Part shown: positions 44,050 to 45,107 of the stretch, piece by piece | Position numbering within the stretch: position 1 is the stretch's first letter | How the letters are laid out: the number at the start of each line of letters is the position of its first letter | NCBI GenBank assembly: GCA_024276995.1 | Contig: JAJRWB010000076.1 | Location: forward strand, 1-64,000 | Direction of reading: 5' to 3' | Source of the DNA: Candidatus Eiseniibacteriota bacterium | Lineage (GTDB): Bacteria > Orphanbacterota > Orphanbacteria > Orphanbacterales > Orphanbacteraceae | DNA length: 64,000 nt | The notes under the pieces: generated by a model | The model's database searches: none | The model's input: only the letters and a program-made list of their open reading frames with translations | What the model was told of the DNA's origin: nothing | Position numbers and translations under genes: made by a program

Positions 44050-44574
44050 TCATTCCTCCAACTCGATGCCGAGGCCGTCGGCGATGCGGTTCACGAAGGC
44101 GAAGTAGGCGGTGATGGCGCAGATATCGTGGATCGTCCGATCGTCGAAACCGGCGGCGCGCAGGGCGAGCGCGTCTTCGGCGCCGACATCGCCCGGCGCG
44201 AGGGTGAGGCGACCGGCGTAGTCGAGCATCGCCCGTTCGTCATCGCGGAGGTCGGCCTTCGTATAGTCCGATTCGAGCGCCTCCACGAGGGAGTCGCCCC
44301 GTGGATCGCCCTCTTTCTTAAGCGCCGCACGGAGACCCGCCCCGTGATGCACCGTTCAGTAGCGGCAGCCGTTCAGCCCCGACACGGTGAGGGCGATCAT
44401 CTCCCGGCGGCTCCTGGCGAGGGGGCCGGGGCGGTGCATGAGGGTGACGTAGAAATCGTAATGATTCTTCATCACCGGCGGGTTCACGCCGTGGACCCGG
44501 ATGATGTTGTCCCTGTCGGGCACGCGGTGGCGTTCGGGGATTTCCTCGTTAGGTGTGTACCGGATGAACGCCAC
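44050..44574 (-). CDS. AhpD-like peroxidase selenoprotein (in-frame UGA = Sec73)
   Basis: Reading through the UGA at 44358-44356 gives a 174-residue carboxymuconolactone-decarboxylase/AhpD-fold protein of the peroxidase-related type. The UGA falls in ALTVSGLNGC-R-Y-U-TVHHGAGLRA. The residues fit the AhpD proton-relay set: Glu58, Cys70, Sec73 and His77, with the spacing I recall for Glu118/Cys130/Cys133/His137 of mycobacterial AhpD. So Sec replaces the peroxidatic Cys. Both halves are typical (MAFIRYTPNE at the start, ITAYFAFVNRIADGLGIELEE at the end). Just after the UGA lies a SECIS-like stem-loop. Start GTG 44574 with GAGG close upstream, 2 bases after the CYTH gene stop. Standard tools see two truncated ORFs (44356-44712 and 44050-44352). 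Thioredoxin may reduce it. Confidence 0.85.
44322..44352 (-). promoter_or_regulatory. SECIS element downstream of the Sec UGA
   Basis: On the minus strand, from base 10 after the UGA, CACGG pairs with CCGUG around a 9-base loop GGCGGGUCU; a second, weaker pairing (GUGC/GCGC-type) continues the stem below. The GGUCU motif bound by SelB in E. coli fdhF lies at bases 19-23 after the UGA in both cases, just before the 3' strand of the stem. The position is therefore what a bacterial SECIS requires. Confidence 0.75.
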
Positions 44575-44576
44575 GG

Positions 44577-45107
44577 TTACCTCGCCTCCCCCGCGCCGCG
44601 CCGGCCGAAGCCGAGGAGGTCGGAGTACGACGATCCCACCACGGCACCGGTGGCGCCGGAAAAGCGACGCGCGAGTTCCTTCACTTTCGCCCACGCCTGC
44701 CCGTCGGTGCACTCGTCGTCCACCACCGCTTCGAACTCGATGAACGCGCCGAGCCCTTCCACGCGGTCGATATGGATCCTCACATTGTCATGGATATAGA
44801 GAAGTCTCGTCTTACGGACGACGCCGATCACACCGAGGGTGGAGGCGAGCGCCTCGTGGAGCGGCCCGGCATCGACCGGCACCACCACGTAGTCGCTCCC
44901 TCTTGCCGCCGCGTCGTCGGGCCGAATGTAGGCGATCAGTTCCGCCCCGCCCGCCGTTTTCCGGATCTTGAGCCGTCCCTCGGTGGAACGGAAGTACGTG
45001 TCGGTCTGCGCCAGTTCGGCGGTGCATGGCCCCGCGATCTCCCCGGCGATGCGGAGAGCGCGGTCGAGGTCGATGCACCGCGCCTTCCACTCGATGTTCC
45101 TGTTCAT
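44577..45107 (-). CDS. CYTH-domain protein (class IV adenylate cyclase/thiamine triphosphatase-like)
   Basis: 176 residues. CYTH tunnel fold: N-terminal NIEWKARCIDLDRAL (in place of the usual ExExK), QTDTYFRSTEGRLKIRKTAGG, LIAYIRPDDAAARGSDY, VVRKTRLLYIHDNVRIHIDRVEGLGAFIEFEAVV. These strands supply the charged residues of the triphosphate tunnel. Members are class IV cyclases, tripolyphosphatases or thiamine triphosphatases; the choice cannot be made from sequence. Stop codon is followed after 2 bases by the selenoprotein start, so the two are probably co-transcribed. Confidence 0.87.
   Translation of the reverse strand: MNRNIEWKARCIDLDRALRIAGEIAGPCTAELAQTDTYFRSTEGRLKIRKTAGGAELIAYIRPDDAAARGSDYVVVPVDAGPLHEALASTLGVIGVVRKTRLLYIHDNVRIHIDRVEGLGAFIEFEAVVDDECTDGQAWAKVKELARRFSGATGAVVGSSYSDLLGFGRRGAGEAR

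What the first reader, a model, noticed from the sequence alone, without database searches (positions are those of the whole stretch)
44050..44574. AhpD-like peroxidase encoded as a selenoprotein (CRYU)
Two adjacent ORFs separated only by an in-frame UGA join into a complete AhpD/CMD peroxidase-related protein. The UGA sits exactly at the peroxidatic Cys position (C70-x-x-U73, with Glu58 and His77 at AhpD spacing). A stem-loop with GGUCU at bases 19-23 after the UGA is in the same register as the E. coli fdhF SECIS. AhpD-like selenoproteins with CxxU have been reported from metagenomes, so the family is rare but not new; a gene with a readable fdhF-like SECIS is a strong case and would be misannotated by routine pipelines.
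Basis: partly seen in the sequence, partly recalled or inferred. Interest (0 to 1): 0.88.

Follow-up and report, generated by a model that had tools for sequence, protein, structure and literature searches.

The report
AhpD-like selenoprotein with CxxU site
A bacterial gene that looks broken by a stop codon really codes for a selenium-containing relative of the antioxidant protein AhpD, a kind of selenoprotein known since 2005 and here found in a little-studied bacterial lineage.

Summary
On the minus strand at 44574–44050, one in-frame UGA (44358–44356) splits a complete TIGR01926 "peroxidase-related" AhpD-family protein at the second cysteine of its CxxC site. The UGA is read as selenocysteine with high confidence. 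It is conserved in 38 sequences (window plus 37 loci from about a dozen phyla); close relatives without UGA have Cys there, never TAA or TAG. tRNA-Sec is found in 31 of 37 genomes with the UGA form and in 0 of 4 with the Cys form. The window's own genome has tRNA-Sec, SelB, SelD (with its own UGA) and SelA, though SelA is frameshifted in this assembly. An AlphaFold model (pLDDT 97.7) matches solved relatives at Z about 24. The window's SECIS hairpin fits the published bacterial model, but alone it is no better than synonymous shuffles. The SECIS evidence is the family: compensatory changes, with the loop in one of two registers, +17–21 (window) or +25–30. CxxU AhpD-like selenoproteins of TIGR01926 are already catalogued. 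New member of a known kind; peroxidase or thiol-reductase activity is inferred.

The parts
44050..44574 (-). AhpD-like selenoprotein gene, 174 aa, GTG start at 44574, terminal UGA stop 44052-44050
   Evidence: TIGR01926 123 bits against a cut-off of 81.8; homologs align from the same start, MA.I.Y
44356..44358 (-). in-frame UGA read as selenocysteine 73 (C-R-Y-U)
   Evidence: TGA in 38 of 42 aligned sites, otherwise TGC/TGT
44365..44367 (-). Cys70 codon, partner (resolving) cysteine of CxxU
   Evidence: Invariant in A6
44401..44403 (-). Glu58 codon, proton-relay residue
   Evidence: Invariant in A1 and A6; corresponds to Glu118 of M. tuberculosis AhpD by spacing (PMC3141380)
44344..44346 (-). 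His77 codon, proton-relay residue
   Evidence: Invariant in A1 and A6
44321..44353 (-). predicted SECIS hairpin, +3 to +35 after the UGA: 5-bp lower stem, 2x2 internal loop, 7-bp upper stem (44346-44340 with 44334-44328), loop CGGGU (44339-44335)
   Evidence: MFE -17.1 kcal/mol; upper stem covaries in relatives
44577..45107 (-). CYTH-domain gene directly upstream, 2 nt from the GTG; neighbour conserved in three genera, functional link unknown
   Evidence: PF01928; synteny

Best explanation
The gene encodes a 174-residue all-helical AhpD-family protein (TIGR01926) whose active site is Cys70-x-x-Sec73. Ribosomes insert selenocysteine at the UGA with Sec-tRNA, SelB and a stem-loop directly downstream, and stop at the second UGA, which ends the gene. 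By analogy with Cys homologs, the selenol of Sec73, activated by the Glu58/His77 relay, would attack a peroxide or disulfide-type substrate. Cys70 would then resolve it as a Cys-Sec bond, which a cellular dithiol donor reduces. Sec insertion is strongly supported. The chemistry, substrate and electron donor are inferred. The confidence given is for Sec insertion in an AhpD-family protein, not for the chemistry.
For: UGA conserved across the window and 37 loci from about a dozen phyla, with Cys at the same site in close relatives that lack it. tRNA-Sec in 31/37 UGA genomes vs 0/4 Cys genomes, Fisher p 0.002 on non-independent genomes. Own genome: tRNA-Sec at 71 bits, SelB 359 bits, SelD 380 bits with its own UGA, SelA, and a peroxiredoxin gene with UGA at its active site. 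SECIS covariation: register I 92% paired with 2 compensated pairs, register II 6 of 7 pairs compensated, 0/500 shuffles. Orthologs with UGA in the same gene order in two other genera. AlphaFold pLDDT 97.7; Z about 24 to TIGR01926-type structures, 12 to M. tuberculosis AhpD.
Against: SelA in this assembly is split by a frameshift; four other members of the phylum have it in one frame, so an assembly error is likely but not proven. The window's hairpin alone is not stronger than synonymous shuffles. 6 of 37 UGA genomes showed no tRNA-Sec, possibly through incomplete MAGs. No expression data.
Confidence: 0.94

Rival explanations
1. The UGA is a true stop: either the gene is a pseudogene or the UGA is a sequencing error for TGC/TGT.
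For: The organism is a draft assembly with at least one frameshift, in selA. Cys homologs exist.
Against: The same UGA occurs in independently assembled genomes of many phyla, and both halves stay conserved. Members of the same phylum have it in the same gene order.
Confidence: 0.03
2. UGA is reassigned or generally suppressed in this organism, inserting Trp or another residue.
For: The frame is open if UGA is read as any residue.
Against: This gene and several neighbours end in TGA. Homologs have Cys, not Trp, at the site. Only one window TGA is flanked by real coding sequence on both sides.
Confidence: 0.01
3. Selenoprotein, but not mainly a peroxidase: a reductase adaptor for a peroxiredoxin or OsmC, or a reductive enzyme like the debrominase Bmp8, which shares the fold. 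(Compatible with Sec insertion; it rivals only the peroxidase chemistry.)
For: M. tuberculosis AhpD passes electrons to AhpC (PMC8945050). Bmp8 has the same fold at Z 19. PA0269 is only a weak peroxidase (PMC3141380). The genome also encodes a Sec peroxiredoxin.
Against: The D. radiodurans AhpD-like protein, a TIGR01926-type relative, protects against H2O2 and needs its CxxC for full effect (PMC8945050). No neighbouring gene points to a partner.
Confidence: 0.35

Closest known systems
AhpD-like CxxU selenoprotein of the Sargasso Sea and GOS surveys (PMC1088965, PMC2398784; listed as TIGR01926, MCB9421940.1, in PMC13188914)
   Same: Same family model, same CxxU motif, UGA plus downstream hairpin
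   Different: Here in a genome of a small phylum, with full genomic context. I could not align the exact published sequences, which were not held.
TIGR01926-type Cys proteins: D. radiodurans AhpD-like (6k40), D. geothermalis 2oyo, R. eutropha 2prr
   Same: Fold (Z about 24) and E/C/x/x/C/H relay positions
   Different: Cys instead of Sec; about 30-32% identity
M. tuberculosis AhpD (1knc, 1gu9)
   Same: Core helical hairpin with Glu118/Cys130/Cys133/His137 spacing
   Different: Different subfamily (TIGR00777 only 15 bits, cut-off 192), about 10% identity, Cys not Sec
NF041238 AhpD_rel_CFYUT (seleno)protein
   Same: CxxU AhpD-like site
   Different: 357-position family model; the window protein scores 55 bits against a cut-off of 175

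Membership tests
TIGR01926 peroxidase-related (AhpD-like) | Score above the curated cut-off (81.8 bits) | tested here: met
   123 bits; all 35 members of A6 match the model
TIGR01926 peroxidase-related (AhpD-like) | AhpD fold with Glu, CxxC/U and His relay positions | tested here: met
   Model and Z about 24 matches; invariant E58, C70, U/C73, H77
TIGR01926 peroxidase-related (AhpD-like) | Peroxidase or reductase activity | not testable with these tools
   Needs an enzyme assay
Bacterial selenoprotein gene | In-frame UGA aligned with Cys of homologs | tested here: met
   38 TGA and 4 TGC/TGT at the site
Bacterial selenoprotein gene | bSECIS: 3-9 nt apical loop, 4-16 bp upper stem, G in the first two loop positions, loop 16-37 nt after the UGA, MFE <= -7.5 (PMC13188914) | tested here: met
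   Loop CGGGU (G at position 2), 7-bp stem, 16 nt between UGA and loop, -8.4 kcal/mol for the upper hairpin, -17.1 for the whole; family covariation
Bacterial selenoprotein gene | selA, selB, selC, selD in the genome | tested here: met
   All four found; caveat: selA is frameshifted in the assembly
Bacterial selenoprotein gene | Selenium in the protein | not testable with these tools
   Needs 75Se labelling or mass spectrometry
Canonical AhpD (TIGR00777) | Score above 191.95 bits | tested here: not met
   15.4 bits

The most novel reading that the evidence does not exclude
In this AhpD subfamily the Sec form is the usual, perhaps ancestral, state across many phyla. The SECIS loop has moved by about 8 nt (loop +17-21 to +25-30) within the same protein segment, giving a natural series for studying how SECIS elements shift inside a constrained coding region. 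The Cys forms in Bacteroidota would then be losses.
Probability: 0.4. Interest if true: 0.45.

Novelty: new member of a known kind. Interest (0 to 1): 0.3.

Why it matters
Standard annotation would call two broken ORFs and miss an intact redox enzyme. The related set in the tree (44 Sec and 7 Cys rows) shows that CxxU AhpD-like proteins of the TIGR01926 type occur across many poorly cultured phyla, and gives two SECIS registers for one protein site. It does not add a new selenoprotein family.

Tried and rejected
Rfam scan of the window at gathering thresholds: no hits. Single-sequence SECIS significance by synonymous shuffles: not significant for the window, so I did not rely on it. A second window TGA with coding-like flanks (12749, minus) is antisense to a real 873-aa gene. 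My contiguous-helix SECIS scan gave no hit for L064, L065 and L081, which may use a bulged or different structure. One origin of Sec vs several: the tree needs 2 changes, with weak deep support, so the direction is open. No functional partner emerged from the neighbourhood; CYTH, ompA, tag and lspA are syntenic only.

Full report
What is there. The feature lies on the minus strand. Two ORFs in one frame (44712–44356 and 44352–44050) are separated only by UGA at 44358–44356. From the GTG at 44574, two bases after the stop of a CYTH-domain gene and preceded by GAGG, the read-through product has 174 residues and ends at a second UGA (44052–44050). The UGA is residue 73 in NGCRY-U-TVHHGAGLR. Glu58, Cys70, U73 and His77 have the spacing of the AhpD proton relay (E, 12 on C, 3 on C, 4 on H; PMC3141380).

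Family. The read-through protein scores 123 bits against TIGR01926 (cut-off 81.8) and passes Pfam CMD. It scores far below canonical AhpD TIGR00777 and below NF041238. Its closest solved relatives by sequence are peroxidase-related proteins such as 2oyo and 6k40. An AlphaFold model from 35 homologs has pLDDT 97.7 and matches 3c1l, 6k40, 2prr and 2oyo at Z about 24, rmsd 1.4–1.7 over 163–168 residues. M. tuberculosis AhpD matches at Z 12.

Conservation of the UGA. A first search of 116 genomes found UGA at the same place in two other genera of the same small phylum, at 58–59% identity. One of these records is labelled Candidatus Eisenbacteria (contig matched by length to G001). A scan of 84,980 species genomes gave 42 loci. 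In 41 of them plus the window the site could be read: 38 TGA, 3 TGC, 1 TGT, no TAA or TAG. The patterns used for that scan avoid the Sec position, but the query was made of Sec members, so the Sec:Cys ratio is biased toward Sec. Record titles name Chloroflexota, Planctomycetota, Gemmatimonadota, KSB1, Acidobacteriota, Zixiibacteriota, Cloacimonadota, Armatimonadota, Acidimicrobiia, Poribacteria and others. In the tree, six Cys members form one supported clade among Sec members and one more Cys row is a long branch; deep branches are weak, so I claim no direction.

Machinery. The window's genome (81 contigs, 96% complete) has tRNA-Sec with anticodon TCA, SelB, and SelD with a UGA near its N-terminus, in its active-site loop. 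It also has a peroxiredoxin gene with UGA at the TPTU site. SelA is present in two overlapping frames with a shift near C12:39050. Four other members of the phylum have SelA in one frame, and six of seven, the window's genome included, have tRNA-Sec. I read the shift as a probable assembly error; it is the main open caveat. Across the loci, tRNA-Sec was found in 31 of 37 UGA genomes and 0 of 4 Cys genomes.

SECIS. The window's downstream RNA folds into a 5-bp lower stem, an internal loop, and a 7-bp upper stem with loop CGGGU, starting 17 nt after the UGA; MFE −17.1 kcal/mol, z −1.75 against dinucleotide shuffles. It satisfies the published bSECIS constraints (PMC13188914; tested). Against synonymous-codon shuffles, which keep the protein, it is unremarkable (P 0.31 and 0.44); summed over 38 family members the fold is modestly more stable than the null (z −2.9). 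The stronger evidence is covariation. In 24 sequences sharing the window's register the six-pair stem is 92% paired, against 26–51% when slid, with two pairs compensated. In 12 sequences of a second register, with the loop at +25 to +30, six of seven pairs show compensatory changes, exceeding all 500 shuffles. The registers were assigned by which stem pairs better, which favours high pairing in each group but not compensatory change as such. The window's GGUCU at +19 to +23 is shared by six of 24 register-I members (the window included) and is not the loop itself in the predicted fold.

Neighbourhood. lspA, tag, ompA, CYTH and ahpD keep their order in three genera, so the gene is an inherited chromosomal locus. 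No neighbour suggests an electron donor.

How it likely works. Shown: conserved UGA, Sec machinery in the genome, SECIS-type stem with family support, AhpD fold and relay residues. Inferred: Sec73 is the attacking residue, Cys70 resolves, and a dithiol donor recycles the enzyme. A D. radiodurans AhpD-like protein needs its CxxC for full protection from H2O2 (PMC8945050). PA0269, in another subfamily, is a weak peroxidase (PMC3141380), and AhpD can instead feed electrons to AhpC. The substrate is therefore left open.

Known status. AhpD-like CxxU selenoproteins were reported in 2005 (PMC1088965) and counted in hundreds in GOS data (PMC2398784). They are listed under TIGR01926 in a 2026 review (PMC13188914). 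This is a new member, with a better-documented family and two SECIS registers as the only additions.

Noticed in passing
G000 C12:38616-39982 (loci L012, L013): selA of the window's genome is split into two overlapping frames; four relatives have it in one frame. Probable assembly error, but worth a read-level check.
   Followed up: partly
L098 (G000 C64:50246-50623, minus): A peroxiredoxin gene in the same genome has an in-frame UGA at its active site (DFTPT-U).
   Followed up: partly
L038 (G054 C2:30522-30935): An AhpD-like UGA gene has Ser instead of the partner Cys (S-S-H-U), so Sec would act without a resolving cysteine at that place. The same genome holds several further AhpD-like UGA genes (L025, L042, L045).
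   Followed up: no
L059, L062, L066, L070, L072-L074, L076, L077, L079, L081, L086: Relatives place the SECIS loop about 8 nt further from the UGA than the window gene does, with strong compensatory changes.
   Followed up: yes
window 12749, minus strand: A TGA with coding-like flanks in the codon-usage scan; it is antisense to a real 873-aa gene and matches no Pfam family.
   Followed up: yes
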